Origin: Mesocentrotus franciscanus
Lineage: Eukaryota; Echinodermata; Echinoidea; Camarodonta; Strongylocentrotidae
Length of the DNA stretch: 64,000 nucleotides
Assembly (NCBI GenBank): GCA_037976565.1
Contig: CP137686.1
Location: forward strand, 3,452,019 to 3,516,018
Direction of reading: 5' to 3'
A model generated the notes under the pieces. The model ran no database searches, had not been told where the DNA came from, and saw nothing but the letters and a program-made list of their open reading frames with translations. Below, piece by piece: positions 7,588 to 44,100 of the stretch; position 1 is the stretch's first letter, and each line of letters begins with the position of its first letter. Both the position numbers and the translations under genes were made by a program.

Positions 7588-8523
7588 ATGAGTTTCTCGT
7601 TTACGCAATACGGTGGGTGCACGTTGCGGTGGGAAATCCCTAACTCACACACAGCAAAGAAATCGGGGAACAAGATCAAGAGAAAGGAGCGTCAAATCGG
7701 GCTAAAAATTCAACATTATCGTCAAAATCGCCAGGAACTGCTCGACCGGGAGGTAAGCGCAACTTAACTTACGGGAGAACAGGCCGGTAGTTATCGTAGG
7801 GCTGGAGCAAAATCTAGTCCACAGCGAGCAGCTACAGCAGGTACATCAATCAACAAACTTCCACCATTGTCAGGCTTTCGGACTTAAAGAATCAACAAAG
7901 TACTTGAACCTCAGAGTGGTGTGAATTCGAAACAGCTATAGCCAAAAGCAAAAACAACGCAACAATTATAGATCTACCTCATCATTCACGGTCCAGGAAG
8001 TAAATTCGGAGGGCATATTATTTCTCACTCAAAACTGTCCACTTCAGGAATAGGAGTTGGTGTCAAAAACCAACCAATCTTTCCAAATAGACCTATCAAA
8101 TCTGAGAATTCAGAGCATCTTCACAGCAGAACAAGTGCCTCGTACTCAAAATCAATCAAACACCTGCACCAACTGCAGTTCTCCAAACTAGAGGAAGCCA
8201 GCAAAGGAGAAGACACCCTATGTGAACAGAACTTCAAATAAATTGGTAGACCAGACGTTAAATAGCAATTAAACAAGTCGACGGTCATCAGGTAGGGGAT
8301 CGGGAAGAGGTTCCAGAGGCAGAGGTTCACCTAGAGGTGGCATGGCGGACAACAACAGATACACCAGCAGTAGCTTGTACGCGGCCAACCCGCCTCGTCA
8401 AGTTGGCCATAGACCTCCAGACGAAGAGGGAGAGGATACTCGTCAAGGACAGGGAGAACCTGGACCATCGCAGGGAAGCTCACAGCAGCCACATCAGCAG
8501 CAGCAGGAGCCACAGGGTGAAAG
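7588..8523 (+). pseudogene. Broken first exon of EPSTI1-like copy A
   Basis: This is the paralogue of gene B exon 1 (36625-37523). The start context TTTTCAGTCATGAGTTTCTC, the RG-rich tract, the SRYTSSSLY-type motif and the GEPGPSQGS motif are all recognisable. The reading frame is interrupted: small insertions near 7600 and 7745, a stop after EVSAT (near 7767) and further indels before 8340 move the homologous protein among frames. The 3' end (8342-8523) is again in an open frame and keeps the donor GAAAG/GTTAGG. The acceptor-side duplication, the intact donor and the frame damage together indicate a decayed exon. Expression as a non-coding leader cannot be excluded. Confidence 0.8.
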
Positions 8524-8978: not shown

Positions 8979-9047
8979 CCCTGGAGCTTAATATAGAATG
9001 ATTCAATATCGACCAAATGCTTATAAAAGGAAAACAGCTATTAAGTA
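8979..9047 (+). pseudogene. Broken exon 2 of EPSTI1-like copy A
   Basis: This is homologous to gene B exon 2 (37999-38057), with the same acceptor TTTCATTTATAG and donor GTAAGTCTCTAT. It is ten bases longer than its paralogue and has an in-frame TAA immediately after Pro-Gly-Ala. The conserved core Q-P-N-A-x-K-R is degraded to RPNAYKR. Confidence 0.8.
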
Positions 9048-9106
9048 GTAAGTCTCTATATAAACTAATATTGTTTTCACGAGGAGCTGAGTAGATATAT
9101 AAGAGC

Positions 9107-9640: not shown

Positions 9641-10680
9641 TCGAGCCCCCCTCACCTTTTTGAAAAAAGTATGTTAAAGAGAAAAAGAAAGAAAGAGAGA
9701 AAGAAAGAATGATTGACCTGCCCCCTCCGCCCCCTTGACCCCACCGAGGGCCCTAAGGCGGCCCCCTGGATGCTCATCTGACCGTAATTGAATACATAAA
9801 ACCCCTGAGCTTTAGGGACCCCACCAAGGGCCCTAAGGCGGCCCCCTGGATGCTCATCTGACCGTAATTAAATACTTAAAACCCCTGAGCTTCCGGGGGC
9901 TCTGCCACCTGAACCCCACCAAGGGCCCTAAGGCGGGCCCCTTGATACTCATCTCACCGTAATGAAATACCTAAAACCCCTGAGCTTCCTGGGGTTCTGC
10001 CTCCGGAACCCCACCAAGGGCCCTAAGGCGGGCCCCTGGATGCCCATATGACTGTAATTAAATGCTTAAAAACCCTAAGCTTCATGTGGCTCAGCACCCT
10101 GGACCCCCGCCAATTAGTGACCTGCCAGTGTCACAAAATAATATGGTATCAAAATATGCTCATCTGACCATCATTAAATGTATTAAAACCCCCTAGCTTC
10201 CGTGGCCTCCGTCCCCTGAACCCCACCAAGGGCCCTAAGGCGGGCCCCTTGATACTCATCTGACCGTAATTAAATACTTAAAACCCCTGAGCTTCCGGGG
10301 GCTCTGCCACCTGAACCCCACCAAGGGCCCTAAGGCGGGCCCCTTGATACTCATCTGACCGTAATTAAATACCTAAAACCCCTGAGCTTGGGGCTCTGCC
10401 CCGACCCACCAAGGGCCCTAAGGCGGGCCCCTGAATGCTGATCTGACCATGATCCAATGCCGAAAACCCCCTGAACTTCAGGGGCTCAGCCCCCTGGACC
10501 CCACGCTAATTAGTGACCTGGCAGTGTCACAAATAAAGTATCTAAATATGCTTATCTGACCGTAATTTAAGGCCCAGAACCTCTGAGCTTCCGGGGGCTC
10601 CGCCCCTTGACCCCACGCCAATTTACGCAGTACCCGATCGTTAATACTCCACTTTGAAAAACGTTCCGCGGGGCCTGCAT
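9640..10680. repeat. Minisatellite-bearing repeat, about 80-105 bp unit
   Basis: AAGGGCCCTAAGGCGG-type cores recur seven times (near 9747, 9828, 9921, 10017, 10227, 10324 and 10409). They are separated by CATCTGACCGTAATTAAATAC and AAAACCCCTGAGCTTC blocks. Flanking GGGCCTGCAGAACGC and the inverted-looking CGCGGGGCCTGCATG at the right suggest the array lies inside a mobile element. It occupies the place where earlier exons of copy A would be expected. Confidence 0.75.
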
Positions 10681-10876: not shown

Positions 10877-10929
10877 AACTAATGAGGGATTTTTAAGAAG
10901 GCTAGATGCAAGAATGAAACCTCCACAGA
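10877..10929 (+). CDS. Orphan EPSTI1-like cassette exon 7 (copy 1)
   Basis: This 53-bp exon has acceptor TTTTTTTGTAG and donor A/GTAAGTTACT. It enters in phase 2 and leaves in phase 1 and encodes TNEGFLRRLDARMKPPQ. It is homologous to exon 7 at 17226, 22100 and 45435. No matching exons 4-6 precede it, so it marks an additional cassette whose upstream exons were lost or replaced by the repeat at 9.1-10.7 kb. Being open and spliceable is not proof of use. Confidence 0.7.
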
Positions 10930-11720
10930 GTAAGTTACTACTAGAATAATAATAATACCTGTTTTTTATATAGCGCTTTACCATTAACTGATTAACTGAT
11001 TAAATCTCAGAGTACGATATAATTATGATGGAGATACTTCTATCGAAAATAATATCGCTAGAGATATTCGTTTGTCTCGCAATACTTGAGATACTTCTAT
11101 TTAACATTAATTACTTAAAGAAAAAGAAAAATCAAGTGTCTTTTCTTCCACTATTATTAATACTGATGTTTACCTTATTAAAGAATACCGGTATGAATAT
11201 GGTAAAAAATAACAAGATTATAAAGCCACTGTAACAGGGATATTACGTACAATAAATATTAAGAGTCAGTTTCTCTGTTTACAGGTTTAATACTCAATAT
11301 GAAATCAAATCGTGATTTTGTTTCTTTATCAAAATCTCTTGGAAGAGGTGCATTCACATAATAGTATAATCTTTCGAGCAAACTATCTTCTTATTTTATC
11401 TCACATTCTTTATCCTTATCCTTCACCTTTCCCTTCGCTCTTACCTTTTTTCTTCTTCATGCGATTGGGGAGTACGCCACTGTGCAATGATATTTTTGAT
11501 ATTTGAAAAACGTATTATTAATCAATGAGAATAATTTTGAAATGGTATATGCAGTTGGTCTTGCAAATTTGGTAGTAGAATTGTCTTGTGTGTTGTGATG
11601 AAATGTCATAACGTTAAAATTCTTTACTATGTAAAAATAAATGCAATAACCTATATGTATCATCGTATTCATATTTTAATAGTGTTCTTTTCCTTTCTTT
11701 ATTTCCCCATTTTTTATCAG

Positions 11721-11794
11721 GTGGAAGTAAGTCTAAGGAGGAGGCTAGGCTGGCCCTAGAGAAGCAGCATCGAAACAATAAATATGAAAAGATG
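11721..11794 (+). CDS. EPSTI1-like cassette exon 4, cassette 1 (copy A)
   Basis: A 74-bp exon with acceptor CCCCATTTTTTATCAG and donor GATG/GTAAGAAAA, phase 1 in and 0 out. It encodes GGSKSKEEARLALEKQ followed by HRNNKYEKM. This corresponds to the GGSxSExE...KY stretch of vertebrate EPSTI1, the start of the coiled coil. Exon 7 at 10877 ends in phase 1, so the two join in frame. The preceding intron lacks exon 3, which gene B has. Confidence 0.75.
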
Positions 11795-12057
11795 GTAAGA
11801 AAAATCGATTTACATTCCTAGGTCTCGGGTTTATATTTAATGTTATCGCTGTAGTTTTGAGTGTTAGTAACAAGATTGCATTTCAATAAGAGAGTAATAA
11901 ACAATTATTCTCAAGAGTTTCTTCTATTACCCTAAATATACACATCGCTCGTGCACCTGCTGAAGCCGCCAAGTCTGACCAGGCTACTATTACCCCCTCC
12001 TTTCGTCAGTTAGATTTTGTCGGGGTCAGTGTCTTCTTTGTTGCTTGTTGATAGATT

Positions 12058-12058
<1 letters not shown>

Positions 12059-12114
<56 letters not shown>

Positions 12115-12135
12115 TATTATTATTATTATTATAAT
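12059..12135. repeat. (TAA)n/(ATT)n microsatellite
   Basis: A run of TAA units is followed by ATT units in the intron after cassette-1 exon 4. The paralogous intron has the same microsatellite at about 19364-19443. Confidence 0.95.
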
Positions 12136-12289
12136 ATATTACATTTATCAAGCGCTAATACAATGTTCCGAAGCGCTTAACAAAAATACAAAGTAATGTT
12201 AACCTAAAACAATATTATATATGATACATAATTCTAGTAAGTAACAATTTCCTAATAACAGTTATATAATAATAATCATTATTATTATT

Positions 12290-12560
12290 AATCTTTACAT
12301 AGCGCTCTATAAATTAACAAACGAAATATAATTACATTACGTATTGAACAGATAAGTTTTAATTTACTCTTGAAGATTTCTAAAGTTCGGGACTCACGTA
12401 TTTCATGGGGAAGTTTGTTCCAAAGTTGGGGAGCACAAACAGAAAAGGCACGATCGCCACAGCAGGTGTGGGTGGGAGGGCCTGGGTCTAAATGGAGATG
12501 TGCTGTGGACAATGATCGGAGACGAATAGATGAAGTATGAGATTTAGGAGTGATAGATTT
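12290..12560 (-). mobile_element. LINE 3' fragment (C-terminal ORF2)
   Basis: The minus strand encodes a peptide with RAFSVCAPQLWNKLPHEIR and then TLEIFKSKLK, the signature of the C-terminus of non-LTR retrotransposon ORF2 (W-x-x-LP...F...LK). A decayed copy occupies the same place in the duplicated intron (about 19600-19795), so this insertion predates the cassette duplication. Confidence 0.75.
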
Positions 12561-12562
12561 TG

Positions 12563-13666
12563 ATATATTTGATTTTGATTTGATTTGATTTTCTTCTGTA
12601 TTCATATAAGTACATAGTTTTTCGATAACACTAATAATATTAGTACAATAAGTATTTTTCTGACAATGAATCATAAATAAGCAAATATATCTTACAATTG
12701 TTATTTTCAAAAACGAAATGATAAACTGTCATAAATACTAAACTTCCTCAAAAATTATAAAATCATTTGCGGAAGAAGGACTGTCATTGTAAGCAGATTG
12801 CTTGATAATACGACAGCCCCAGACAAAACTCATGAAATAGATTAGCACATTTATTAAGCAGAACGATTAGGTGATTGAAAATACAAATTTTAATGACGGC
12901 GATATTGATAATGCAGATGAGGATGATGATGAAGATGATGATGAAGATGAAGATGATGATGACGATGATGATAATGATTTGAATGAAAGAAGAGATGACA
13001 TTATGATAAAGACTGAAGAGTTGACACAGAAATTTTACCTTGAATATTCTGATAATAGCACCGTTTTAACTTTGGCCTTAAATGAGTAGAGGGAGCAACA
13101 TGATTTAATAAATTCTGGGAGAGAGTTCCATAGGTCTGGACCATGGTGTCTTATGGATCTATGGGCAATAAGTAATTTTGGGTTAATGACTAGATGAAAA
13201 TTTGAGGAATTACGGGTAGGGTAAGAGTGAATGGCTTTATTTATAGTATAAAAGCTTTGAAATGAAAGAGGGGGCATATTATTTAAATACTTAAACATGA
13301 TCAGTAAACTTTGTAGCGAATTAATGTCGAATACTGTGGAACTCCACATTTGGTAGGCAGGAAATTAAAAAACATCATTATACACTATATATTGTTTTCT
13401 GTTAGATAAATAGCTCTCAAAGACTCAAACCATGACAATGCAACTCCACGAATTCCATAACAGTACATTCTTTCAGTAAAATTTGGTGGTCAAGGGTGTC
13501 ATGGCTTTTGATAAGTCCATAAGTACTCCTATTTCATGTTCTTAATTGGCCATAACATTCGTTATTGTATCATATATACTTGTACTAAAGCTTGGTCGGT
13601 TCAATGTCCTTTTCTGAAACCATATTGATTTTGATTTAGGAAATGAAAAGTATCTAAAAACTTATA
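12563..13666 (-). mobile_element. Second truncated LINE, only in cassette 1
   Basis: On the minus strand, 13349-13035 encodes a LINE C-terminal stretch (HGPDLWNSLPEFIKSC). Upstream, near 13500-13640, is a degraded reverse-transcriptase stretch with an LMDLSKA-like motif. In the paralogous intron, AGATTTTGATATA runs directly into ATATGATAGCTGAAC, so the element is absent there. An acidic, GAT-rich microsatellite (about 12905-12980) is embedded. Confidence 0.65.
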
Positions 13667-14240
13667 TGATAGCTGAACGAGGGTATTAAAAGGAAGCACT
13701 CCTCCATGCACCCCCACTTAATGAAATTGTGTTTAGATAGGTTGAGAGGATAGAGTACTATTAAGTGGCAGGGGGAGAAGCAACTTAGCCTACTTTAATA
13801 CTCCAGCCACAGTATAGCACACTTTTATTGACGGGAGAGAAACATCACGTTTCTAGAAGACAGACTTTCATGAACATGGGTTAAAGTAATGCTCCGGCAA
13901 CATTTGCTTCGAGCTTTATTTCATCAAAGATACTTGTAGATCTTCAGGTTAGTTGTTGCAATTTCGGTTTTTAGTGAGGTAAAGTGTTTGGTCCAGGGAT
14001 GAGGTTAGGATTTTGTTTAGCGTATAGGAACGACAAAAGTGCAATTGTCACCGGACCACGAGTCAAAGAACCAAAATAATGTGACAAAATCTTTGCGTCA
14101 ACAGGTGAACAGTGCAAAGATGCTATTGATGTTCAATGTGATATATCACATTTGTCAGACTTTATCCTGTTGTACATACAGTGATTATTAAAACTTCCAA
14201 CCATGTGGTTTTAGTAATGTTCTTTTTTCCCCCCAAATAG

Positions 14241-14324
14241 CTGAAGAAAAAACAACAGCAGAGAGAAAAGAGGGAGAGAGAAGATAAGAAATATGAAGAA
14301 AAGAAAGCCAGAGCTAGACAAACG
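14241..14324 (+). CDS. EPSTI1-like cassette exon 5, cassette 1
   Basis: An 84-bp exon, phase 0 in and out, with acceptor TTTTTTCCCCCCAAATAG and donor ACG/GTAAGAATT. It encodes 28 highly charged residues starting LKKKQQQREKREREDK and ending KARARQT, a coiled-coil segment. It is homologous to 20372-20455 and 43763-43846. Confidence 0.8.
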
Positions 14325-14617
14325 GTAAGAATTATCAGTTAATTGGAGCTTGACAAGTTTGTTTTTCTACTAAATCCTTGGGCATAAATCATTTATTTGT
14401 AGTTTTTTTCACATTCAGTGTATATTTTTATAGCTCAAGTACAGTTTTGAGGAGCTAAATAAAATTAGAAAGAAACATTTTAAATATATATGCTTATGTT
14501 TTTCTTCTTGTAATGCTTGTATAAAAAAGTATATATATATGTACGAGATCATTTAGCACTCTATCCATGATAGAATTGTAATGTAAATATCTGCAAGGAA
14601 TGCTAGATAACAGCTAT

Positions 14618-14618
14618 A

Positions 14619-14651
<33 letters not shown>

Positions 14652-16085
14652 TTTATTTCCGTATAAAAACATAATAACAATGAGATACGGTGGATTCCCC
14701 ACATTCAGCTTACCCGACATGGGAAAGCTGGTCTTCCGTGGGGTCCGGAACAAGTACATAAACAAAACAAAATATAAACAACAGTAAATAAATTGTCAAA
14801 GAAAAACATTAAATAAACATCAAGTGATCATAACAAGATAAGGAGGGGGACCATGCGCTACAGTTCTGCTATCTTAGATTTGAATATATTAATACTATAG
14901 GGGACGATTTGATATGAGGAGGAAGTGATCTTTTGAGGTAATTTGTTCTAGGTTTGGGTAATTTTATTTTAGCTCCAATTCGGGAAGGGTAGGAATAGGT
15001 TATCAACTCAAATTCATTTCTTTTATATTCAGGGGTTAGATTATTCATAATTTTATACATAAGGGCAAGGGAAGGATGATTTCTTCTTTTTTCCAAGAGT
15101 TGCCAATTAAGAGCATTGTGCATTTCCAAAACAGAGACATGAGATTCAGGTTTTATTTGAAGTATAATACTCCCTGCCATATTTTGTATTTTTTGGAGGC
15201 GATCTGTATATTTCCTGAAAGCTGCACTGGAAATAACATCACCATAATCAAATTACGGAAGGATCAGTGAGCTATATATTAATTTCAGTACCGATTCACT
15301 TACTAGTAGGAATCGCCTTAGTCTTCATAGAAAGCCTACCATTTGACCAATTTTCGTCAACATATTTTCTATATGTAAATTCCAGTTCCAACTAAGACGC
15401 CAAGGTACTTGACATGATGAACTTAATCTATTGAGATGTCATTCAATGAAACTCGGATGACATTCTGTTTAGATATCGAGTGGTTGTTTCCAATGAGCAT
15501 ACAAATTGTTTTTGACAGTTGCCACTTAATTTGTTTTGGCACATCCAGTAATACATATTTTCTAAGTCAGAGTTCAAAGCTAGTTCAATTCTATCTATAG
15601 AAGGATGTGAAAAATATAGAACAGTATCATCAGCATACAACTGAACATGACAGGTTTTGATACATTTTACTAAATCATTGATATATATGATGAAGAGCAG
15701 TGGCCCTAGGAGGGAACCTTGAGGCACACCACACTCAACGGATAATTCGAAAGAAAGTTCTGAATTAATAAGTGTCCTACTGACTCTGTCTGACAGGTTG
15801 CTTTTAAACCATTAACATGGAGTGCCAGAAATTCCTATGCTATTAAGTTTTGTATGAAGAATATCACAATTCACAGTGTCGAAGGCTTTTCTTAAGTCCA
15901 CAAATACAGCCCCCGTATACTCTTTCTTATCAGTTGCGTGGAGCCAGTCATCAGTTACTTTTAGGAGAGTGGTAACAGTTGAGTGACGTGGCCTGAAACC
16001 AGATTGCGCGGATGACAAATAGAAACTCCAGAACTTGCCTTTGGACAACCCGTTTTAGTGTTTTCGATACACACCTTTGTGAATT
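14618..16085 (-). mobile_element. 5'-truncated LINE inserted in cassette 1 intron
   Basis: Minus-strand order: reverse-transcriptase palm part 1 (16048-15812, with VFVDLRKAFDTVNCDIL), palm part 2 (15727-15443, with PQGSLLGPLLF and the YADD catalytic box), then the C-terminal ORF2 part (15180-14869, with LLEKRRNHPSLALMYKI). The 3' end is a (CTA)n tail at about 14618-14650. Frame breaks show it is dead. Cassette 2 has an empty site: AACAGCTAT joins ACACTCCCCTAAG directly. Confidence 0.85.
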
Positions 16086-16441
16086 ACACTCCCCTAGGAT
16101 AGGACCCTTCTACCTTAATGGCTCCCACCACATAAATCACAGCACTGTGCTCGGAGACAGTAGTGTATGTACACACAGTTCTCATAGGCTTTACACGTGT
16201 GTAGTGCAGGTTGCTGATGTTAGAATTTACATCCCAGGATGGGTATCTGCATTATTTTCTACCTCTCGTTTGTTTGATAAATCACTTGAGGAGGAAAAAA
16301 CACTTCACAGCAGTTTAGTATTATCACTATCTTCCTATTCATCATCTAAACCAAAGAAATCTTACAAAAAGATTTGGGGGGGGGGGTTTACCAAAACTTT
16401 ACTTGACCTTTAAATTACGAATATTGACATCGTTTTTTCAG

Positions 16442-16515
16442 GCTGAAGAAAACGAACGAATAAGAAAGGAGAGAGAAGTTAAAGTCTTAAGAGATGTTGC
16501 AGATGAACATGCCAG
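16442..16515 (+). CDS. EPSTI1-like cassette exon 6, cassette 1
   Basis: A 74-bp exon, phase 0 in and 2 out, with acceptor CGTTTTTTCAG and donor CCAG/GTGAGT. It encodes AEENERIRKEREVKVLRD followed by VADEHA, continuing the charged coiled coil. The frame is intact, unlike the gene B counterpart at 44070. Confidence 0.8.
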
Positions 16516-17225
16516 GTGAGTTGCTCCCCCCTCCCCCTCTTCCTCTTTGTGGAAAACAAATAGATGCTTCAATTTTTTGTTTTTAATACCTTACACATTG
16601 TTTGACACCAAGCAAAGAAGCTGTCGACCATTGGTTATTACATGGTGTGAAAAATATTTGTGCTTTGTGGAACCAATGCCTCAATCTCAAAATCAAACCA
16701 TACAATGTGAACAGAACTTCAAATAAAATGATAGTCCAGATATTACAAATTCTTTTTGTATGTTTTGGACAAATTGACACGTTTTTTAACCATTTTAGGG
16801 ACAAGTATATTCTAGAGTTCAAATATTCTAGCCGGAGAAAAGAGAAAATGCTTTAAATTCTGTGATTTCAATGCTTCCGAACTGAAAACAGAGAAGTAAA
16901 GATGCATTATATAAATCTTACTTTTTCTATGCTTCTTCTTATGTTCTTCTCATGTGATGGATAACAGCACATTACAAGATTTCAAATTTGATATTAATTA
17001 ATTATTATTTTTTTTAAATATAAATTTCATTGTTCTCCAATTTATTTGTATTGATGAAAATAAGAAGAAGCCTAAATCACAAATACTGAAGATGTCTTCT
17101 CCCGAAGCAATTAGGGGAACAGCTACAGGGTATTCAGTTCTATTTTCGTTAGAATTTGAGGACATGTTTGTTTGTTTTTATTTTGTCAATCTTATTCTGT
17201 TCATATCACATTTTGTTTTTTGTAG

Positions 17226-17278
17226 AACTAATGATGGATTCTTAAGAAGGTTCGAGGCAGGAATGACACCTCCACAGA
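17226..17278 (+). CDS. EPSTI1-like cassette exon 7, cassette 1
   Basis: A 53-bp exon, phase 2 in and 1 out, encoding TNDGFLRRFEAGMTPPQ. This matches the short conserved VNxAFLDRLQ-type motif that ends the coiled coil in vertebrate EPSTI1. The downstream intron (17330-17670) is homologous to gene B intron 7. Homology stops before a CUE exon is reached, so this copy has no terminal exon. Confidence 0.8.
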
Positions 17279-17679
17279 GTAAGTTACTACTACAATAACA
17301 TAATGATAAAACCTGTTTTTTATCGCGCTTTACCATTCACTGACCAAAGCGCATACAGTATTAATATTACCCAGGCCACTGGATTCAATTACTATTAAGG
17401 TTTGGGTTGCATTACTGCAGGGTCTTTAGGTTAGGTTAAAGGTTAGGGCTAGGTAGAGTGTTAGCATCTTTTTACTACCCATAATTTATACTGGATACAT
17501 GCTTCAACTTATTAACACATTACTTGCTCACCTCGCCTCTCTGCACGGTCTCTCGTTTGCCACAAGTGCGATTTTCACAGAACAATAGGCACCAATTGAC
17601 AGAAGGCTTGCTTTATGCAACACAATGGCTTTGCAAAATTACTCCTTTCTGGTATTGAATAGCTCCATGAATCGCTCTG

Positions 17680-18655
17680 TCTCTTTTCCCGTATGTCTTT
17701 TATCTGTTACACCTATCTCCATTTCTTTTTCTTCTCTGCTGTACACTACATTAAGGACGCAGCTCTGACCAACGCGAAGCATTTTTTGATAATTTTACCG
17801 AAAAATAGGTATTACATGTATCATGGAAATATGAGTTTTTACAGGTAACATCTTTCAATGTCAATTCATGTCATTTCAGTGTATTTATTTGTCCAAGATC
17901 ATTCAACATGGATATTTGGTTAGCTCACATGTAAAATAAAGGCTCAGACAAAGTTTACAAGGAACAGAAATATGATACAAAAACATGGATACATTTTGGT
18001 GATGACGAAATAATAGTCATACATAATAATGATTCGCGTTTGGTTATGACTTCTTTAGTTTCCTTAAATTACGTAATTTAACTGTCTTTATGCATATTTA
18101 TAAATAAAAATGTATTTACCACTATACACATGGAAAAGTAAACTTTTAAACTGAATTGAAGTATAGCGGAATAATTCTGATAAATTTAAAATATAAATAC
18201 TGAATTATATGGGCAATTGATTATCGTGTACCACACCGTAATAATTACTTTCATTCAATATTCATTTTACTCATTTCTTAATAAAACATAATATTAAAGA
18301 AAAAAACAGAAACGCACATAGAAAATTAAGCTTTAAACTGAATTGAAGTATATCGGAATAAATCTGATAGATTGAAAATATAAATAATGAATTATATGGG
18401 CAATTGATTATCGTGTACCACGCCGTAATAATTACTTTCATTCAATATTCATTTTACTCATTTCCTAATAAAACATAATATTAAAGAAAAAAACAGAAAC
18501 GCTGGGTAACAAAACGCATTATATTTGGTTACATGCCATGATTGAATTCGGAGCAATTGTGTTTGTAAATCACTAAGTCCTAAATCTGAGTTACCTCAAT
18601 CTGAGAAACTCCTAGAAAGAAAATAACGGAAAAGTCAATAGAAAGTCAATAAGAT
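17680..18655. repeat. Intron DNA with a 187-bp tandem duplication
   Basis: Sequence at about 18125-18312 repeats at about 18314-18500 with only small differences; shared blocks include CTGAATTGAAGTATA and TGGGCAATTGATTATCG. No exon is recognised between the cassettes here. Confidence 0.8.
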
Positions 18656-19028
18656 CATACGCTAGTAAACAGCTTTTTCCTTATCCTTATCCTTCATCTT
18701 TCCCTCGCTCTGACTTTTTTTCTTCTTCATGCAATTTGGGAGCATGTGCCCCATCCACCTCCCATAGCTTCGCCACTGTGCAATGATATTTTTGATATTT
18801 GAAAAACGTATAAACGAGAATAATTTTGAAATGGTATATGCAGTTGGTCTTGCAATCTTGGTAGTAAAATTGTCTTGTGTTGTAACCGGGGTGGGGGTGG
18901 GGTGATGAAATGTCATAACGTTTAAATTCTTTGCTATGTAAACAAACATACAATATCCTTCTATGTAGCATCGTATTCACATTTAAAAAGTGTTCTTTTC
19001 TCTTTTTATTTCCCCATTTTTTTATCAG

Positions 19029-19102
19029 GTGGAAGTAAGTTTGAGGAGGAGGCTAGGCTGGCGCCAGAGAAGCAGCATCGAACCAAGAAATATGAACAAA
19101 TC
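19029..19102 (+). CDS. EPSTI1-like cassette exon 4, cassette 2
   Basis: A 74-bp exon, phase 1 in and 0 out, encoding GGSKFEEEARLAPEKQ followed by HRTKKYEQI. Acceptor TTTTTTTATCAG and donor ATC/GTAAGAAAA are canonical. Relative to the other copies it has a proline in the predicted helix (LAPEK). Confidence 0.78.
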
Positions 19103-19363
19103 GTAAGAAAAATCGATTTACATTCCTTGGTCTCGGGATATATTTGATGTTATCGCTGTAATTTTGAGTGTTAGTAACAAGATTGCATTTTATAAGAGAG
19201 TAATAAACAATTATTCTCAAGAGTTTCTTCTATTACCCTAAATATACATATCGCTCGTGCATCTGCTGGAGCCGACAAGTTTGGCCAGGCTACTATTACC
19301 CCCTCCTTTCGTCAGTTAGATTTTGTCGGGGTCAGTGTCTTTTTTTGTTGCTTGTTGATAGAT

Positions 19364-19364
19364 T

Positions 19365-19406
<42 letters not shown>

Positions 19407-19445
19407 TATAATAATAACAATAATAATAATAATAATAATAATGAT
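19364..19445. repeat. (TAA)n microsatellite, paralogous copy
   Basis: This is the counterpart of 12059-12135 in the duplicated intron, with independent interruptions (TTATAATAATAACAA). Confidence 0.95.
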
Positions 19446-19599
19446 ATATTACATTTATCAAGCGCTTAATACAATGTTCCGAAGCTCTTAACTAAAATAG
19501 TTAATGTAATGTAATGTTAACCTACAATAATATTATACATGATACATAATTCTAATAACATTTCCTAATAACAATTTCCTAATAATAATAATGATTATT

Positions 19600-19850
19600 A
19601 TTAATCTTTACATAGCACTTTATAAATTAACAAACGTAATATAATTACATTACATATTGAATAATTGAACAGATAAGTTTTAAGTTTACTCTTGAAGGTT
19701 TTTAAAGTTATGGACTTACGTATTTCATGGTTTTCATGATTTTTAGGAGTGATAGATTTTGATATAAATATGATAGCTGAACAAGGGTAAAGGGAGTATT
19801 CCTCCACTCCTACAATCATAATTATATCAAAATCTATCACTCCTAAAAAT
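19600..19850 (-). mobile_element. Decayed LINE 3' fragment, paralogous copy
   Basis: The minus strand retains LKTFKSKLKTYLF, matching the fragment at 12290-12560. A short inverted repeat (TTTAGGAGTGATAGATTTTG near 19741 and its complement near 19825) was created beside it. Confidence 0.65.
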
Positions 19851-20371
19851 CATGAAACCCATGAAATTGTGTTTGGACAAGTTGTGACGAGAGAGTATAC
19901 TTTGTAGTGGCAGGGGAGAAACAACTTAGCCTACTTTAATACTCAAGCCACAGTATAGCACACTTTCATTGACGGGAGAGAAAGATCACGTTTCTGGAAG
20001 ACAGACCGTCTGAAGTTCATGAACATGGGTTAAAGTAATGCTCCGGCAACATTTGCTTCGAGCTTTATTTCTTCAAAGATACTTGTAGACCTTCAGGTTA
20101 GTTGTTGCAATTTCGGTTTTGGTTAGGTAAAGTGTTTGGTCCAAGGTTGAAGCTGAATTAGGAACGAGAAAAGTGCAATTGTCACCTAACCATGAGTCGA
20201 AGGACCAAAATAATATGGCGAAATCTTTGATCAACAGGTCCAGAGTGCAAAGATGCTATTGATGGTCAATGTGATTTTCACATTTGTCAGACTTTATCCT
20301 GTTGAACATGCAGTAATTATTAACTTTTTCAACCATGTGGTTTTAGTTTAGTGTTTTTTTTACCCAAACAG

Positions 20372-20455
20372 GAGAAGAGAGAAAAACAGCGGAGAGAAAA
20401 GAAGGAGAGAGAAGATAAAGAGCTACAAGAAATGAAAGCTAAAGCTAGACAAACA
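20372..20455 (+). CDS. EPSTI1-like cassette exon 5, cassette 2
   Basis: An 84-bp exon, phase 0 in and out, with acceptor TTTTTTTACCCAAACAG and donor ACA/GTAAGAATT. It encodes EKREKQRREKKEREDKEL and ends MKAKARQT. The N-terminal LKK of the other copies has become EKR through indel-free substitutions. Confidence 0.8.
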
Positions 20456-20789
20456 GTAAGAATTATCAGTTGATTGGAGCTTGACAAGTTTGTTTTTCTA
20501 TCGAATTCTTGGGCATAAATCATTTATTTGTAGTTTTTTCACATTCAGTGTATATAGTTTTATAGCTCATGTACAGTCTTGAGGAGCTAAAATGAAATTT
20601 GAAAGAAACATGTAAAATATAATATATGCTTATTTTGTTCTTGTAATGCTTGTATAAAAAAATATAAACATGTATATATATAAGAGATCATTTAGCACTG
20701 TATCAATGATATCCGGTGAATTGCAATGTAAATTTCTGCAAGTAATGCTAGATAACAGCTATACACTCCCCTAAGCTAGGATCCTTCTA

Positions 20790-21014
20790 TACACTCTAAA
20801 AAATCTAGTCAGATTTGAATAGATTACCGTATCAGCTAGAGGGACACTTAGTAGATTTTTAAAATGACTAGATTCTAGTAAAAATGACAAGAATTCTATT
20901 CAAGTATCACTAGAATTCTGGTCATTTTGACTAGAATCTAGTCATTTTAAAATAAAAACTAGTAAGTGTCCCTCTTAATCTATTCAAATCTGACTAGATT
21001 ATTTTTAGAGTTTA
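20790..21014. mobile_element. MITE inserted only in cassette 2
   Basis: The ends TACACTCTAAAAAATCTAGT and CTAGATTATTTTTAGAGTTTA (inverted) enclose a palindromic body with GACTAGATTCTAGT and GACTAGAATCTAGTC. Cassette 1 has an empty site, CCTTCTACC next to AATGGCTCCCACC (near 16108-16130). It was therefore inserted after the cassettes duplicated, probably with a TA target. Confidence 0.85.
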
Positions 21015-21341
21015 TCCCAATGGCTCCCACCACATTAATATCAGACAGTGTGTGTGTAGACTGTAGTGTATGTACACACAGTTCTCATAGGCTTTACACG
21101 TGTGTAGTGCAGGTTGCTGATGTTAGAATTTACATCCCAGGATGGGTATCTGCATTATTTTCTACCTCTCATTTGTTAGATAAATCACTTGAGGAGGAAA
21201 AAAAACTACTTCACAGCAGTTGAGTATTATCACTATCTTCCTATTCATCATCTAAAATCAGAGATGTCTTACAAAAGGATTGGAGGGGGGCTTACCAAAA
21301 CTTTACTTGACCTTTAAATTACAAAGATTTACTTTTTTCAG

Positions 21342-21415
21342 GCTGAAGAAAACGAACGAATAAGAAAGGAGAGAGAAGTTAAAGTCTTAAGAGATAATGC
21401 AGATAAACATGCCAG
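21342..21415 (+). CDS. EPSTI1-like cassette exon 6, cassette 2
   Basis: A 74-bp exon, phase 0 in and 2 out, encoding AEENERIRKEREVKVLRD followed by NADKHA. It differs from cassette 1 exon 6 by only two residues, indicating recent duplication or conversion. Acceptor TTTACTTTTTTCAG and donor CCAG/GTGAGT are intact. Confidence 0.8.
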
Positions 21416-22099
21416 GTGAGTTGCCCCCCTCCCCCTCTTCCTCTTTGTGGAAAACAAATAGATGCTTAAATTTTTTATTTTTAATACCTTACACATTGTT
21501 TGACACCAAGCAAAGAAACTGTTGACCATTGGTTATTACATGTACATGGTGTGAAAAATGTTTGTGCTTTGTGGAACCAATGCCTCAATCTCAAAATCAA
21601 ACCACACAATGTGAACAGAACTTTATATAAAATGATAGTCCAGACATTACAAGTTCTTGTTTTAGGGTTTTGGACAAATTGACACGTTTGTTCAACTATA
21701 TCATTATAGGGACATGTATATTCTTGAGTTCAAATACTCTAGCCGGAGAAAAGAGAAAATGCTTTAAATTCTGTGATTTCAATGCTTCCAAACTGTACAG
21801 AGAATTATAGATGCATTATATAAATCTTTACTTGTCTATGCTTGCCTAGCACATTACAAGATTCCAAATTAAATTTTTTTTTTTTTTTTTTAATTTCATT
21901 GTTCTCCAATTTATTTTTATTGATAAAAATAATTAAAAGACGAAAGCACAAATACAGAAGATGTCTTCTCCTGAAGCAATTAGGGGAGCAGCTACAGGGT
22001 ATTCAGTTCTATTTCGTTAGAATTGGAGGACATGTTTGTGTGTTTTTTTAAAACTTTTGTCAATCTTATTTTTTTCATATCACATTTTGTTTTTTGTAG

Positions 22100-22152
22100 A
22101 ACTAATGAGGGATTCCTAAGAAGGCTAGAGGCAGGTGTGACACTTCCACAGA
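22100..22152 (+). CDS. EPSTI1-like cassette exon 7, cassette 2
   Basis: A 53-bp exon, phase 2 in and 1 out, encoding TNEGFLRRLEAGVTLPQ, with acceptor TTTTGTTTTTTGTAG and donor A/GTAAGTTACT. It is the last recognisable exon of copy A. Its phase-1 end would fit exon 4 (42583) or exon 8 (46045) of gene B. Confidence 0.8.
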
Positions 22153-23159: not shown

Positions 23160-25030
23160 AAACATTGTGGGGGCCAAAAATGTGCGGGGGCATCTCCTTG
23201 GCTATGCCGCTACCGTAATATTGAACAGTGAGGACATCGCGAAGTTCAAATCATATAGGAAGCGCCAGAAAGTCATCTCCAAACGACGGAAGCTCGCCGG
23301 TAAGCGGGAGTCCATCCAGGAAGATTTGACGAAAGCAAATCAACTAGACCAGCTTGCACATGTACGAACCACTGAGAAAGTAAAAGCAGCATGGTTACAA
23401 GATGGTCGTATTCTATAGTGACTTACAAAAACAAACAAAAAAGATGATCTTCATAATTTAAGTAATTATAGACCAATCTCAGTTTTACCATTTCTTTCAA
23501 TTTTTTTAGAACGAATTGTATATAATCGTTTGAATACATTTTTATTGGATAATGCAAAATCAAATTCCTGCCAAATAAATATGAATTTACCAAAAATGTA
23601 TCAACTGAAATGGCTCTAATTGATTTTCATGATTAGTATTAGTATCTTCCTTAAGTAATAAATTGCACACTATAGGTCTTTTCTTAGCCTTTGATTCTAT
23701 AGATCACAATATTTTGTTAGATAAATTGAATTACCATGAAATAAGAGGTGTTGCTTACACATGGTTTAAAATTTTTTTGAAAAATCGACACCAAATAGTT
23801 GTATATAACAATGTTTTATCCGACCCAATGCAAGTCACGTGTGGATCGAGTCCCTCAGGGCTCAATTTTAGGTCCTGTTTTATTTTTATTTTACATAAAT
23901 GATTTAAATTATTGTTCAAACATTTTGAAATTTGTCCTTTTTGATGAAGACACCAGACACCAATATCCTCTATTCTTATAAAGATATTAATATTTTGTGT
24001 CAAACTTAAATAATGAATTGCAGCATATATTTGAATAGGCTACATGTAAATCTAATTATATATATTTTCATTGTATGCAAAATATATTTTCAGATGATTC
24101 GTTTATTAATGCATTAAATATAAAGATGAATGATGTTCCAATAAAACGAGTGCAATCAACTAACCCTTTAGGTGTAATTATTGACCGACATTTAACTTGG
24201 AATGCTCATATACTTGCCATTTCAAACAATATTTCACGAAATATTGGTGTCATCAGCAAATTACGTCTAAATACAATGGTTTTTAACGTACTTAATTTAT
24301 TGTGATGTTGTATGGGGCAACACATACCCAACAAGATTGGAACGACTGCTTATATTACAAAAGCGTATAGTAAGAATATTTCTTATGTCTGATTTCAATG
24401 CCCATTCAAAACTATTATTTCAACAACTACAGTTTTTAAATATTTATCAGTTGAATCAATATTGTATATCACTCATGGTTTTTAAACACAAAACTGATAA
24501 ACTGCCGATTAATCTTGCCACTATGATGAAATGTCAAAAATATGTTCATAATTATAATACTAGATATCCTGATAATTTACTTTTAGACACACTGGCCCCA
24601 AAATTTGGAACTCTTTCCCCAGAGATATCCGTGATTCTACTTTCTTTAACTCTTTTAAATCAAAAATTGAAAAATACTTCATCTTTTTTTAAATCAATAA
24701 TAATATATGCATGTTAATACGTCTACTATGTTTTGTACACTGTTTTGTTATTGTTATATCTTTTATAGGCAATTGTTGGATCTTGTATGCATCTTTTAAT
24801 AACAGGGACTGCCTCGAGAGAACCTTACGGTTTTATTTGCAGTTTTGTTTGCAGTTTCCCCAATTCATTTCTATTGATTAACTTTGTATCATAATTCTGG
24901 TATATTTGTAGACATGTTTCCGTTTTGTGTATGTTCTCTGCTTTCTATATTGTATGTAATCTGTATTTTGATACTTTCATAAAATGTGTTTTTTTATGGA
25001 TTTGAATTGAAATAAAAGTTGAAACTTGAA
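23160..25030 (+). mobile_element. Degenerate LINE with ORF1 and RT remnants
   Basis: 23167-23418 encodes a basic segment ending VKAAWLQDGRIL, resembling the end of LINE ORF1 proteins. Reverse-transcriptase pieces follow in several frames: NYRPISVLPF (near 23465), AFDSIDHNILLDKL (near 23690), VPQGSILGPVLFLFYINDL (near 23850), and the C-terminal ORF2 part with RLLILQKRIVRIF (near 24340). The 3' end has AATAAA near 25011. The YADD box reads LFDEDT, so the catalytic aspartate pair is lost. It is a dead CR1/jockey-like element. Confidence 0.8.
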
Positions 25031-27892: not shown

Positions 27893-27972
27893 GCTAGTTA
27901 GGGTAGAGGATAGTTCCTGGGTCACAGTATTACCTTCCAATTTGACGTCATAGAAATGAATATGTATAAGCA

Positions 27973-28261: not shown

Positions 28262-28269
<8 letters not shown>
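27973..28269. other. Inner left part of the TIR element
   Basis: Subterminal sequence with a CA microsatellite (about 28098-28112) passing into purine-rich DNA. No gene is recognised. Confidence 0.4.
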
Positions 28270-28292
<23 letters not shown>

Positions 28293-36624: not shown

Positions 36625-37523
36625 ATGAGTTTCTCGTATACGGTGGGTGGGAAGTCCCTAACTCACACACAGCAAGGAAATCGGGGACAAGATCAAGAGA
36701 AAGGAGCGTCAAAGCGAGCTAAAAATTCAACATTATCGTCAACAAAATCGGCAGGAACTGCTCGACGGGGAGGTAAGCGCAACTTAGCGGGAGAGCAGCC
36801 CGGTAGTACTACTACTACTACTACTAGTACTAGTCGTAGGGCTGGAGAAAAATCTAGTCCACAGCGAGCAGCAGGTATATCAATCAACAATTTGAACAAA
36901 CCTCAACAAACTTCCACCATTGTCACGCTGTCAGACTTAAAGAATCAACAAAGTAAACCTCAGAGTCAGAGTGGTGTCGATTCGAAACCAGCCAAAGGCA
37001 AAAACAACGCAGCGATAGATTTACCTCATCATTCAGGTCCCGGAAGAAAATTAGGAGGGCAGATTAATATTACTAGTTCTGAATCAAAACTGTCCGCTGC
37101 TAGAAGAGGAGATGGTGTCAGAAACCAACCAATCTCTCCAAATAGACCTATCAAATCTGAGAATTCAGAGCATCTTCACAGCAGAACAAGTGCCTCAAAT
37201 TCAAACTCAAAATCAAATCACAAACCCAATGTGAACAGAACTTCAAGTAAATTGATAGACCAGACATTAAATAGCAATAAGACTTCTTCAAGTCAACGAT
37301 CACCAGGTAGGGGAAGAGGTTCCAGAGGCAGAGGTTCACCAAGAGGCAGCATGGCATACAACAGCAGATACACCAGCAGTAGCTTGTACTCGGCCAACCC
37401 TCGTCAAGTTGGCCAAAGACCTCGAGACGAAGAGGGAGAGGATACTCGTCAACAGCAGGGAGAACCTGGACCATCGCAGGGAAGCCCACAGCAGCCACAG
37501 CAGCAGCAGCCACAGGGTGAAAG
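36625..37523 (+). CDS. Gene B exon 1: RG- and Gln-rich N-terminus
   Basis: This exon encodes 299 residues plus two bases. The start is the ATG of GTCATGAGTTTC; an upstream in-frame TTG at 36610 is not a plausible start. Residues about 225-245 contain SPGRGRGSRGRGSPRGS, a possible RNA- or methyltransferase-binding tract, and a Gln/Pro-rich run follows. The donor GAAAG/GTTAGG was chosen because only it gives phase 2, matching exon 2. An internal GGAG/GTAAGC (36771-36774) is a potential alternative donor. The N-terminal part has no recognisable fold. Confidence 0.75.
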
Positions 37524-38113
37524 GTTAGGGGTAGTATCTGTTGTGATATTCTTAAGTTGTTTGCCCTCAAATGGCATTTCCCATAGGTTTCTCCCCAAGG
37601 TATTTCGGGCTTCGTACATAACGGGTTAACATGTTTTGCTTGGCTCTTGAAGAATATCAAAATACTTGGCCATTATGTCACTCATAAAGACAATAGTGAT
37701 TTTGAGAAACCTGTTCTTCAGACTCTGAGCTTATTAAATACCAATCTGTCCTACCGTAAAGTGATAAAAGGGAAGGATGACATACTGTATAATGCAAAAC
37801 CCCACAGTAATCTTGGTTTTGTTCATGTACAGTGTAATAATGATGTATACATGTATATTTTGGTTTTCTATTTATACAAGCTTTAAATCCTTCCTTTGTT
37901 TCCTCAGGAGAAACATTAGATTCGTTCATTTTCTTCTCCTCATGGAAAAGTAATTTTGATTTCATTCCTAATATCAATAACTTGTTTTTCATTTATAGCC
38001 CTGGAGCTTTTAGAGTGATTCAACCAAATGCATCTAAGAGACAACAGCTGTTAAATAGTAAGTCTCTATTCAAATATTGTTTTCAAGAGGAGTTGAGTAG
38101 AGATATAAGAGGA

Positions 38114-41100: not shown

Positions 41101-44100
41101 GAAGGTAAAGTCTAAAATATCTGCATCAATTTTTATTACAAATTATTGATTTCACTGTTTTCTTCCAGTTTTCAAGTTTTATTACATAATTCAGATAAAA
41201 ATTTTAAAAAATTCAAAACGATACATGATGGGACAGCAAACAAAAGGTTGGTATTCTAACGAGTAAAATATTAATGAAAAGAAGAAGAAAAATTATAAAA
41301 TAATAAAAAGTAGGCCTATACAATGAAGAAAAATGATATCATCTAGCACAGAAATATCTTCTTTTTTTAATATAATAAAAATTATAATTAAAAAATTATT
41401 ATAAAAAAATCAAAAAAATCAACAACAAAAAAATCGATAGCACATATCTATTTTAAAGTATTTACAACCCCCTCCCACCCTCCCTAGAATCCTGTGGATT
41501 TTCCACGGGCCCTGCTAGTATATACATTAATAGTAAAACTTTTGAAGAGCATTTTTTGAGCAAACTTTCTTCTTATTTTATCTCACATTCTTTTTTTCTT
41601 TTCCTTTTTCTTTCCCTCACTCTGAAATTTTTGTTTCTCATGCAATTGGGGGAAACGTGCTGGTCTTGCAAGTTTGGTAGTAAAATTGTCTTGTGTTGTG
41701 ACCAGGGAAGGGGGGTGGGGGTGGTGACTAAATGTCATATTGTTAAAATTCTTGCTATGGAATGAAAGGGAGGGATTTGATTTATTCTGACTAATGGTTT
41801 AATACCTTGTTGTTTTTTTTTAAACCAGGGTCTTCACAAGAGATGAAGGCTCTTGAAGATTATAGGGCTGCCAAGAAACCAACTACTATACACGGAGAAG
41901 CTCGTTGTGCAGGTAGGCCTGCAGTACATTTCCCATCATCCACAAGTTCATACAGACTTCATACAGAGGTGTTGTGGTCGAGTTGTTTAAGCACTTGACT
42001 TGAAGTTCAAAGGTCGTGGGTTTGTTCCCCGACACGGCACTAGTGTCTTTCAACAAGGTTTTAATCTATATTTGCCACTCCATACCCAGGAGAGAAATGG
42101 GGACCTGGTAGGATGACGAAAGCCTTTGTGTTAGTAATTGCAATATGCCCTCATGGTGACCATATAGTAGGAATACTCCCCAGGGAGTGGAGATGGTGTA
42201 AATTGTGTGTGAATGAATCCGATGACCAGGTAATAATATCTATAAAGCGCTTAGTGAAGGTATTTTGTGTTAAGCGCTATATAAATCCAGACTATTATTC
42301 AGCTCATTCAAACCGTACTTCAGCAAGATGAAAAGATATTCAAGCTCTTGCCTTTTGCTTTGGGAATTTTATCCTGGGATTTTCACAAAAAATGCATTCT
42401 CGCTTGATTATTTCCACATGTATACAAATTTTTGCACAAACAGTTGAATATTGCTTTAGTCTGTAATTTCACCCTTTTTTTTAATTGCATGTAAACAAAA
42501 AGGCAATACCTTCTATGTAGCATCGTATACACATTTTAAAAGTGTTCTTTTCCTTTCTTTATTTCCCCATTTCTTTTATCAGGTGGAAGTAAGTCTGAGG
42601 AGGAGGCTAGGCTGGCCCAAGAGAAGCAGCATCAAACCAAGAAATATGAACAGATCGTAAGAAAAATTGATTTATATGCCATGGTCTCAGTTTTTATGCC
42701 TCCGCTACAAGTAGCCGGAGGCATTATGTTTTCGGGTTGTCCGTCCATCTGTTCATACGTCCCGTTCTCGCGTTATCTCAAGAACCGATTGAAGGATTCC
42801 CACCAAACTTAAGTCATGTATGTATCTTGCAGAGTCAATGAACTGATTAGATTTTGGGGTCATGAGGTCCAAGGTCACAGGGCTCATTATGTATGCAAAA
42901 ACAGCTTGTGATCACACTATCATTAGAACCGAAGGAGGGATTACCATCATACTCAAGACATGTATGTATCTTGCAGAGCCAATGAACTGGTTAGATTTTA
43001 GGGTCATGAGGTCAAAGGTCAAAAGTCATGGGTTCATTATGTATGCAAAAATATCTTGTGATCGCATCATCATTAGAACCGATATACAGATTACCATCAA
43101 ACTCAAGACAACTATATGTATCTTGCAGAGCTAATGAACTGTTTAGATTTTAGGGTCATGAGGCAAAGATCAAAGGTCATGGGGCTTATTATGTATGCCT
43201 ATAAATAGCTTGTGAACGCATTATCATTAGAACCGACAGGTGGTGGATTACTATCAAACTCAGGACATGTATTTTTCTTGCAGAGCCATGTATATGAAAA
43301 ATAGCTTGTAATCACGATATTCTGAGAACCTGTCAATGGATGCCCCCCACTTTTTCAAGTACCCCAAAAGTGCCCCTTTTACATAGGAAAATTGCCCATT
43401 TTACTTTGGCAAGTGCCCCTATTACTTTGTAAAAGTGCCCCTTCCCCTTTTCACCTCTGATAAGTGCCCCTTTTCCTTATGATAAGTGCCCCCATTAAAA
43501 AAGAGCCCTCCCCCTTTTCATAAATGCCCCTTCTCACCTCTGGTAAATGGCCTTTTTCAGGTACCAGAAGTTACTCCTTTTCACTTCAAATAAGTGCCCC
43601 TTCACCTCCGATAAATGCATCTATTAAAATCTGATCGGGTCATACGAGTGCCCTTTTTGAACCCCCCACTTTGGATGTCGCTCTGCCGCCCCTGATGCAG
43701 TGATTATTAAATCCTCCAACCATGCATGTGGTTTTAGTAATGTTCTTTTTTTCCCCAAACAGCTGAAGAAAGAACAACAGCGGAGAGAAAAGAGGGAGAG
43801 AGAAGATAAGGAGTTTCAAGAAAAGAAAGCCAAAGCTAGACAAACGGTAAGAATTATCAGTTGATTGGAGCTTGACAAGTTTGTTTTTCTATCAAATCCT
43901 TAATAGCGATCTTAGTCTTTGTGAAACACTCCCCATGATGGGTATCTGCATTATTTTCTACCTCTCATTTGTTTGATAAATCACTTGAGAAGGAAAAAAA
44001 ATATTTCTCAGCATTATAGTATTATCACTATCTTTACATGAAGATTTACATTTTTTTTTTTTTTTTCAGGCTGAAGAAAACGCACGAAAAAAAAGGAGAG

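What the first reader, a model, noticed from the sequence alone, without database searches (positions are those of the whole stretch)
10877..22152. Iterated four-exon coiled-coil cassette with symmetric 1-1 phases
Exons 4-7 of an EPSTI1-like gene (74, 84, 74 and 53 bp) occur twice in full (11721-17278 and 19029-22152), once more in gene B, and once as an orphan exon 7. Every copy-A exon is open and has canonical splice sites. The cassette enters and leaves in phase 1, so each added copy extends the protein in frame by about 95 residues. This is a ready-made route to variable coiled-coil length.
Basis: partly seen in the sequence, partly recalled or inferred. Interest (0 to 1): 0.8.

Follow-up and report, generated by a model that had tools for sequence, protein, structure and literature searches.

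The report
Repeated helix exons in urchin EPSTI1
A sea-urchin relative of the human immune-linked gene EPSTI1 has a neighbouring partial copy in which a four-exon block coding for one long protein helix occurs twice in a row, all still readable, so the animal may make a longer version of the protein, although nobody has yet shown that it does.

Summary
Exons of 74, 84, 74 and 53 nt occur twice in full (A1, A2), once in altered form in gene B, and once as a lone exon 7; all nine copy-A exons are open, with AG/GT splice sites, and each full cassette has phase 1 at both ends (285 nt, 95 aa). Gene B is the EPSTI1 ortholog: one cassette plus a C-terminal CUE (ubiquitin-binding-type) domain; in this assembly its exon 6 is one base out of frame at an A8 run. 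Gene A is a partial tandem duplicate: the front of exon 1 is decayed, exon 2 has a stop, exon 3 is missing, and no CUE exon or 3' end of its own was found. Its exon 1 tail is still open and joins the lone exon 7 and both cassettes in frame (268 aa). A predicted Strongylocentrotus purpuratus protein shows the same order: exon 1 tail, exon 7, exon 4, exon 5. The A cassettes have diverged from outgroups about as much as the canonical gene. However, dN/dS is 0.65 (0.32 to 1.58), and the exon indel deficit is not significant once low-complexity sequence is excluded. A used two-cassette EPSTI1 variant is the best reading; expression and the 3' end are unproven.

The parts
7590..8272 (+). Gene A, decayed front of exon 1: 18 internal indels against gene B, 12 of them not multiples of 3; in-frame TAA at 8270-8272
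8273..8523 (+). Gene A, exon 1 tail, still open (internal ATG at 8342, 60 codons + 2 nt, leaves phase 2, donor GTTAGG as in gene B); 4 of 4 indels against gene B are multiples of 3
8979..9047 (+). Gene A, exon 2 remnant with an in-frame TAA
10877..10929 (+). Lone exon 7 (53 nt, phase 2 in, 1 out)
   Evidence: same order and LDARM residues in S. purpuratus P0003
11721..11794 (+). Cassette A1 exon 4
14241..14324 (+). Cassette A1 exon 5
16442..16515 (+). Cassette A1 exon 6
17226..17278 (+). Cassette A1 exon 7
19029..19102 (+). Cassette A2 exon 4
20372..20455 (+). Cassette A2 exon 5
21342..21415 (+). Cassette A2 exon 6
22100..22152 (+). Cassette A2 exon 7 (leaves phase 1; no CUE exon homologue seen before gene B)
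36625..37523 (+). Gene B exon 1 (899 nt, open from ATG)
   Evidence: aligns with Lytechinus P0008/P0009 N-termini
37999..38057 (+). Gene B exon 2
41829..41912 (+). Gene B exon 3 (absent from gene A)
42583..42656 (+). Gene B exon 4
43763..43846 (+). Gene B exon 5
44070..44133 (+). Gene B exon 6, 64 nt, frameshifted at the A8 run 44087-44094
   Evidence: S. purpuratus P0001 is in frame here
45435..45496 (+). Gene B exon 7 (62 nt, +9 in frame)
46045..46184 (+). Gene B terminal exon 8, CUE domain; the only match found in the genome by DNA

Best explanation
The locus holds a sea-urchin EPSTI1 gene (B: disordered N-terminal exon 1, one helical cassette of exons 4-7, CUE domain) and, upstream in the same orientation, a partial tandem copy (A) that still codes. 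Shown: gene A reads in frame from an internal ATG in exon 1 (8342) through the lone exon 7 and two full cassettes, because exon 1 and exon 6 leave in the same phase and exon 7 turns phase 2 into phase 1. Inferred: gene A is transcribed and spliced this way, giving an EPSTI1 variant with a short N-terminus and two ~80-residue helices in series. Inferred, weaker: having no recognisable 3' end of its own, it either stops just inside intron 7 (six added residues) or splices in frame, 24 kb on, to gene B's CUE exon, giving two cassettes plus CUE. The array arose by tandem duplication of a block running from intron 2 to intron 7, followed by loss of exons 3-6 from the first unit.
For: Ten exons of gene A join in frame, 805 nt and 268 aa, without a stop. 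S. purpuratus predicted protein P0003 (XP_011670050.1) has exon 1 tail, exon 7, exon 4, exon 5 in that order. It shares with A and not with B the residues NPPRQVGHRPP in exon 1, and its exon 7 matches the lone exon 7 best (15 of 17; the five others compared 7 to 13 of 17). Frame is kept where needed: in exon 1, frame-breaking indels stop before the TAA, and the 4 indels after it are all multiples of 3 (4.4 frame-breaking ones expected, P(0) 0.012; 4 of 4 against 6 of 18, Fisher 0.029). Chance of no stop in A1 and A2 after 18+19 random substitutions: 0.036 (intron spectrum) or 0.089 (uniform); with the lone exon 7, 0.024 or 0.070. From three outgroup proteins, A1 and A2 differ at 29-41 and 31-42 of 91 positions, B at 31-37 and S. 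purpuratus B at 31-39; 0 of 12 relative-rate tests is significant. All 18 splice dinucleotides of the nine cassette exons are canonical.
Against: No transcript was seen. dN/dS between A1 and A2 is 0.65 with bootstrap 0.32-1.58, so neutrality is not rejected. Exon substitutions (37/285) are no rarer than in the immediate flanks (42/412). The apparent indel deficit in exons (about 8 expected; none real) shrinks to 0 against 1.5 expected (P 0.22) once low-complexity context is excluded. Private residues fall on outgroup-invariant positions as often as chance (A1 4 of 6, A2 4 of 8). P0003's exons 4-5 are nearer to the B-type copies (9 and 10 differences of 52) than to A1 or A2 (17 and 16), and its exon 1 tail is as close to B (40/48) as to A (41/49). 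P0003 is listed only under eukprot and metaclust, not ncbi/nr, so the prediction may have been withdrawn. Gene A lacks exon 3, a sound exon 2, the front of exon 1 and any recognised 3' end.
Confidence: 0.55

Rival explanations
1. Gene A is an unprocessed pseudogene. The cassettes are relics young enough not to have gathered stops, and only gene B is used.
For: Front of exon 1, exon 2 and exon 3 are lost or broken and no 3' end was found; substitutions in exons match the flanks; dN/dS interval includes 1; indel depletion is not significant after the low-complexity control.
Against: The same gene A order is open in S. purpuratus; frame preserved from the TAA onward in exon 1; protein divergence from outgroups similar to that of the canonical gene; no stop, no indel and no lost splice dinucleotide together are unlikely under neutrality by my rough product (about 0.001 to 0.003, and an estimate of my own, 0.17, for splice sites).
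Confidence: 0.33
2. A and B are one transcription unit with two promoters: the A exons are alternative upstream exons of gene B, spliced from A2 exon 7 to B exon 3, 4 or 8. (This is a special case of the best explanation, not exclusive of it.)
For: Gene A has no recognised 3' end; exon 7 leaves in phase 1 and B exons 3, 4 and 8 are used in phase 1; A2 exon 7 to B exon 8 gives a 314-aa open protein ending in the CUE domain.
Against: The splice to exon 8 would span 24 kb and skip gene B's other exons; the B exon 3 or exon 4 routes run into the exon 6 frameshift in this assembly. No junction evidence.
Confidence: 0.2
3. The gene B frameshift is real and gene B is the dying copy, with gene A taking over.
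For: Exon 6 of B is one base short of the S. purpuratus frame.
Against: The missing base lies in an A8 run, a typical site of sequencing error or of an allelic variant (general knowledge). The 299 codons of exon 1 are open, exons 2-5 and 8 are open and match orthologs. Gene A cannot supply exons 2-3 or a CUE domain.
Confidence: 0.08

Closest known systems
EPSTI1 (epithelial-stromal interaction protein 1), vertebrates
   Same: Human EPSTI1 may also hold two helical units (internal alignment score 80, 0 of 2000 shuffles as high, but rotated controls reached 80).
   Different: The urchin orthologs end in a CUE domain; human P0004 has no Pfam-A hit at E up to 1 in the copy used.
One-cassette EPSTI1 orthologs (Lytechinus P0008, P0009; unnamed P0010; S. 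purpuratus P0001)
   Same: Same order as gene B; CUE above the curated cut-off in each.
   Different: They have one cassette; gene A has two plus a lone exon 7 and no CUE.
S. purpuratus XP_011670050.1 (P0003, LOC105441031)
   Same: Exon 1 tail, exon 7, exon 4, exon 5 in order, starting at the same internal Met as gene A.
   Different: The model ends just after exon 5, so its cassette number is unknown; its exons 4-5 are closer to B-type copies than to A1 or A2.
Tandem duplication of symmetric (phase-matched) exons, a general route to repeat proteins (recalled)
   Same: Phase 1-1 block, in-frame addition of 95 aa per copy.
   Different: Here a four-exon block is copied, and the entry point is a different exon (exon 1 to exon 7) made possible by a shared phase 2.

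Membership tests
EPSTI1 family | Pfam family shared with vertebrate EPSTI1 (PF28372) | tested here: met
   Precomputed for primate P0004-P0007 and for orthologs P0001, P0002, P0008-P0010. Gene B is 82% identical to P0001 over 33% of its length and 49% to P0008 over its full length. The model is not in the Pfam copy I could run, so genes A and B themselves were not scored; P0003 carries no precomputed domain.
EPSTI1 family | Helical, charged central region | tested here: met
   Model of ortholog P0008: one helix 337-416, ten-residue blocks 341-410 at pLDDT 84-96; genes A and B themselves not folded.
EPSTI1 family | Binding to VCP and role in STAT1 turnover | not testable with these tools
   Reported for mouse Epsti1 in PMC11234217 (abstract and passages seen).
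CUE-domain proteins (gene B only) | Score above the Pfam cut-off for PF02845 | tested here: met
   B exon 8 alone 21.7 bits against cut-off 21.1; P0001 27.5, P0002 23.1; P0008 22.2, P0009 22.5, P0010 22.4. A 187-aa gene B piece scored 17.6, below the cut-off.
CUE-domain proteins (gene A) | Own CUE exon | tested here: not met
   No exon 8 homologue seen between 22152 and 36000; one match in the genome by DNA.
Tandem in-frame exon duplication in use | Exon 7 to exon 4 junction in transcripts | tested here: inconclusive
   Junction present in S. purpuratus predicted protein P0003; no transcript data for this genome.
Pseudogene | Disabling changes in the coding exons | tested here: inconclusive
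   Present in front of exon 1 and in exon 2, exon 3 absent; none in exon 1 tail, lone exon 7, A1, A2.

The most novel reading that the evidence does not exclude
Gene A and gene B form one alternatively promoted EPSTI1 unit. The upstream promoter yields a two-cassette form whose last exon 7 splices 24 kb on to the CUE exon of gene B, so the animal makes EPSTI1 proteins whose helical spacer between the N-terminus and a ubiquitin-binding CUE domain is one or two units long, and cassette number varies between species or individuals.
Probability: 0.18. Interest if true: 0.6.

Novelty: new variant of a known kind. Interest (0 to 1): 0.36.

Why it matters
EPSTI1 is an interferon-linked gene whose molecular function has rarely been investigated; a mouse study proposes it as a cofactor of the segregase VCP in removing ubiquitinated STAT1 (PMC11234217, abstract and passages seen). 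A ubiquitin-binding-type CUE domain on the urchin orthologs fits that idea, and no paper in the library held both 'EPSTI1' and 'CUE domain'. If the multi-cassette form is made, the locus is a compact natural test of what changing helix length does in this family, and shows how a shared exon phase lets a broken duplicate start again from a different exon.

Tried and rejected
Considered and dropped. (1) Positive selection on the cassettes: exons differ more between A1 and A2 (13%) than the alignable introns on average (6.7%; 7.9% over a larger set), but the immediate flanks of exons 4 and 5 are about as divergent (14/126 and 19/119) and dS is raised too (0.199), so patchy gene conversion is as good an explanation. 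(2) Indel depletion as proof of coding use: P 0.0004 at first, P 0.22 after excluding low-complexity context. (3) Programmed frameshifting at the A8 run of gene B: thought of, not tested; sequencing error or a null allele is simpler. (4) Further copies in the genome: the exon 4 region gave 3 places and the CUE exon 1. Searches with the exon 1, exon 5 and exon 7 regions and with a protein did not complete ('machine busy or cannot be reached'): 27 unanswered calls in all (3, 13, 15, 18, 21, 23, 26, 29, 33, 35, 38, 43, 46, 49, 53, 56, 58, 61, 63, 64, 65, 69, 71, 73, 75, 76, 78; one search was the exon 4 query, answered when repeated). More distant copies, and stray copies of exons 1, 5 or 7, are therefore not excluded. 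(5) Literature: 'EPSTI1' with 'sea urchin' 0 papers, LOC105441031 0 papers, 'EPSTI1' with 'CUE domain' 0 papers; some searches were read as listings only (one search lists an Aplysia paper, PMC8195618, that mentions EPSTI1, which I did not open). (6) The human internal repeat: the shuffle control supports it, the rotation control (maximum 80, equal to the observed score) does not separate it, and urchin cassettes match the second human half only weakly (55, 11 and 0 of 1000 shuffles as high for P0010, P0008 and A1). (7) One script failed and was corrected.
Full report
What is there. The window is G000:C21:3452019-3516018 of a 773 Mb assembly in 21 contigs. Its gene B is closest to Strongylocentrotus purpuratus (82% identity to P0001, over a third of its length) and further from Lytechinus (49% and 47% over the whole length), so I take it to be a sea urchin near Strongylocentrotus (inference). 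Gene B (36625-46184, eight exons) encodes an EPSTI1-family protein. Exon 1 (899 nt) codes for a long low-complexity N-terminus; exons 2 and 3 follow; exons 4-7 are the cassette; exon 8 is a CUE domain.

Family. A profile search returned full-length orthologs of the same layout, P0008 (L. pictus, 469 aa), P0009 (L. variegatus, 508 aa) and P0010 (468 aa, unnamed source), beside human and three other primate EPSTI1; nine proteins passed E 0.01 out of 7985 candidates scored. The independent evidence is the precomputed Pfam family PF28372.1, shared by the four primate EPSTI1 and by P0001, P0002, P0008, P0009 and P0010; that model is not in the Pfam copy I could run. The CUE domain passes the Pfam cut-off in five of five orthologs scanned that reach the C-terminus (P0001, P0002, P0008, P0009, P0010) and in B exon 8 on its own, though a longer gene B piece falls below it (17.6 against 21.1); it is not found in human P0004. 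Three of the four solved chains listed for P0001 are CUE proteins (yeast Cue2, SMARCAD1), weakly (E 0.05 to 0.3).

The cassette as a protein. In the model of P0008 (alignment of 5, mean pLDDT 54 because the N-terminus is disordered) residues 337-416 form one continuous helix, with the ten-residue blocks from 341 to 410 at pLDDT 84-96, followed by a short linker and three C-terminal helices at 432-468. One cassette is therefore roughly one 80-residue charged helix ending in a conserved FLRRL-type motif. Human EPSTI1 may hold two such units in series: alignment score 80 between the two parts, 0 of 2000 shuffles as high, best shuffle 70; but rotations of the second part, which keep most of its order, also reached 80, and urchin cassettes match the second part only weakly. 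I treat it as suggestive.

Anatomy of gene A. Against gene B, gene A keeps the exon 1 and exon 2 region (7539-9111 with 36576-38117, 79%), then a 95-bp tandem repeat stretch, then the lone exon 7 and two full cassettes. Both cassettes lack exon 3 and seem to share the same deletion before exon 4. No homologue of the CUE exon was seen between A2 and gene B, and that exon has one match in the genome. Homology of A1 with gene B ends at 17670, equivalent to 45880, about 165 nt before exon 8, so the duplicated block stopped short of the CUE exon. I infer tandem duplication of a block from intron 2 to intron 7, with most of the first unit later lost.

Why the lone exon 7 makes sense. Exon 1 leaves in phase 2, as does exon 6, and exon 7 enters in phase 2 and leaves in phase 1, which is what exon 4 needs. 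So exon 1 can splice to the lone exon 7, then to A1 and A2, in frame. Exon 1 itself is broken in its front part, with an in-frame TAA at 8270-8272, but open from 8273, with an ATG at 8342. The ten exons make 805 nt and 268 aa with no stop. The S. purpuratus predicted protein XP_011670050.1 (P0003) starts at the matching Met and runs exon 1 tail, exon 7, exon 4, exon 5. In exon 1 it shares NPPRQVGHRPP with gene A where gene B has NP-RQVGQRPR, and its exon 7 matches the lone exon 7 at 15 of 17 residues against 13, 12 and 11 for A1, A2 and B, 13 for S. purpuratus B and 7 for L. pictus. Overall identity of its exon 1 tail does not separate A (41/49) from B (40/48), and its exons 4-5 are nearer to B-type copies (10 and 9 differences of 52) than to A1 or A2 (17 and 16). 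I take the order plus these shared residues to mean that gene A predates the split of the two species. P0003 is listed under eukprot and metaclust only, so the prediction may not be in current annotation.

Is it under selection? For use: after the TAA, 4 of 4 exon 1 indels are multiples of 3, against 6 of 18 internal ones before it (after dropping two end artefacts; Fisher 0.029; 4.4 frame-breaking ones expected, P(0) 0.012). No stops in A1 and A2 has a chance of 0.036-0.089 under random substitution, or 0.024-0.070 with the lone exon 7. All splice dinucleotides of the nine cassette exons are intact. Divergence from three outgroups is similar to that of the canonical gene: 29, 29, 41 (A1) and 34, 31, 42 (A2) of 91 against 33, 31, 37 (B) and 33, 31, 39 (S. 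purpuratus B), with no significant difference in 12 of 12 relative-rate comparisons (p 0.29 to 1; numbers are small). Against or neutral: dN/dS 0.65, bootstrap 0.32-1.58; exons not slower than flanks, 37/285 against 42/412; private residues fall on invariant positions as often as expected; indel deficit 0 against 1.5 expected after excluding low-complexity context. On balance I put the used-gene reading at 0.55 and the relic reading at 0.33.

Gene B's frameshift. Exon 6 is 9 nt shorter than in A, matching the three residues fewer in the S. purpuratus, Lytechinus and P0010 proteins, and one nucleotide short of the S. purpuratus frame at an A8 run, 44087-44094. The other gene B exons are open. 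Homopolymer error or a segregating allele is the simplest reading; raw reads would settle it.

The 3' end. If A2 exon 7 is not spliced on, the frame ends six residues into the intron; if it is spliced to gene B exon 8, 24 kb on, a 314-aa protein with two cassettes and a CUE domain results. The phases allow it; nothing else supports it yet.

Novelty. Duplication of phase-matched exons is a known kind of event (recalled; one search was read as a listing only). This is a new instance, with an unusual entry exon, in a family for which no urchin description was found in the library. The genome-wide copy count rests on two answered searches; the others did not complete.

Noticed in passing
44087-44094: A8 run in gene B exon 6 where the assembly is one base short of the S. 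purpuratus reading frame, cutting off exon 7 and the CUE domain.
   Followed up: partly
46045-46184: Sea-urchin EPSTI1 orthologs carry a C-terminal CUE domain not found in human EPSTI1; no paper in the library held both terms.
   Followed up: partly
16681-16745, 21585-21649, 44229-44298: A 65-70 bp fragment of exon 1 coding sequence (37201-37271) lies in the intron between exons 6 and 7 of all three cassettes, at 84-90% identity. Origin unexplained.
   Followed up: partly
27902-28007 and 36463-36568: Inverted pair (91%) around an ~8.5 kb stretch that separates gene B exon 1 from sequence (27651-27870) matching the region just upstream of gene A (6981-7249): a possible insertion in gene B's promoter side.
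   Followed up: no
9724-10616: Tandem array of a ~95-bp unit between gene A exon 1 and the lone exon 7, where exons 3-6 were lost.
   Followed up: no
4223-5395: Open reading frame of 390 codons in one piece with a sulfotransferase domain (PF00685, E 3.9e-15).
   Followed up: partly
28231-30872: 1.3 kb tandem duplication, 95.5% identical.
   Followed up: no
51518-52300: 17-bp-period minisatellite, 36 register copies of the reference block (end approximate).
   Followed up: no
23200-25000: Looks by eye like debris of a reverse-transcriptase element; not tested.
   Followed up: no
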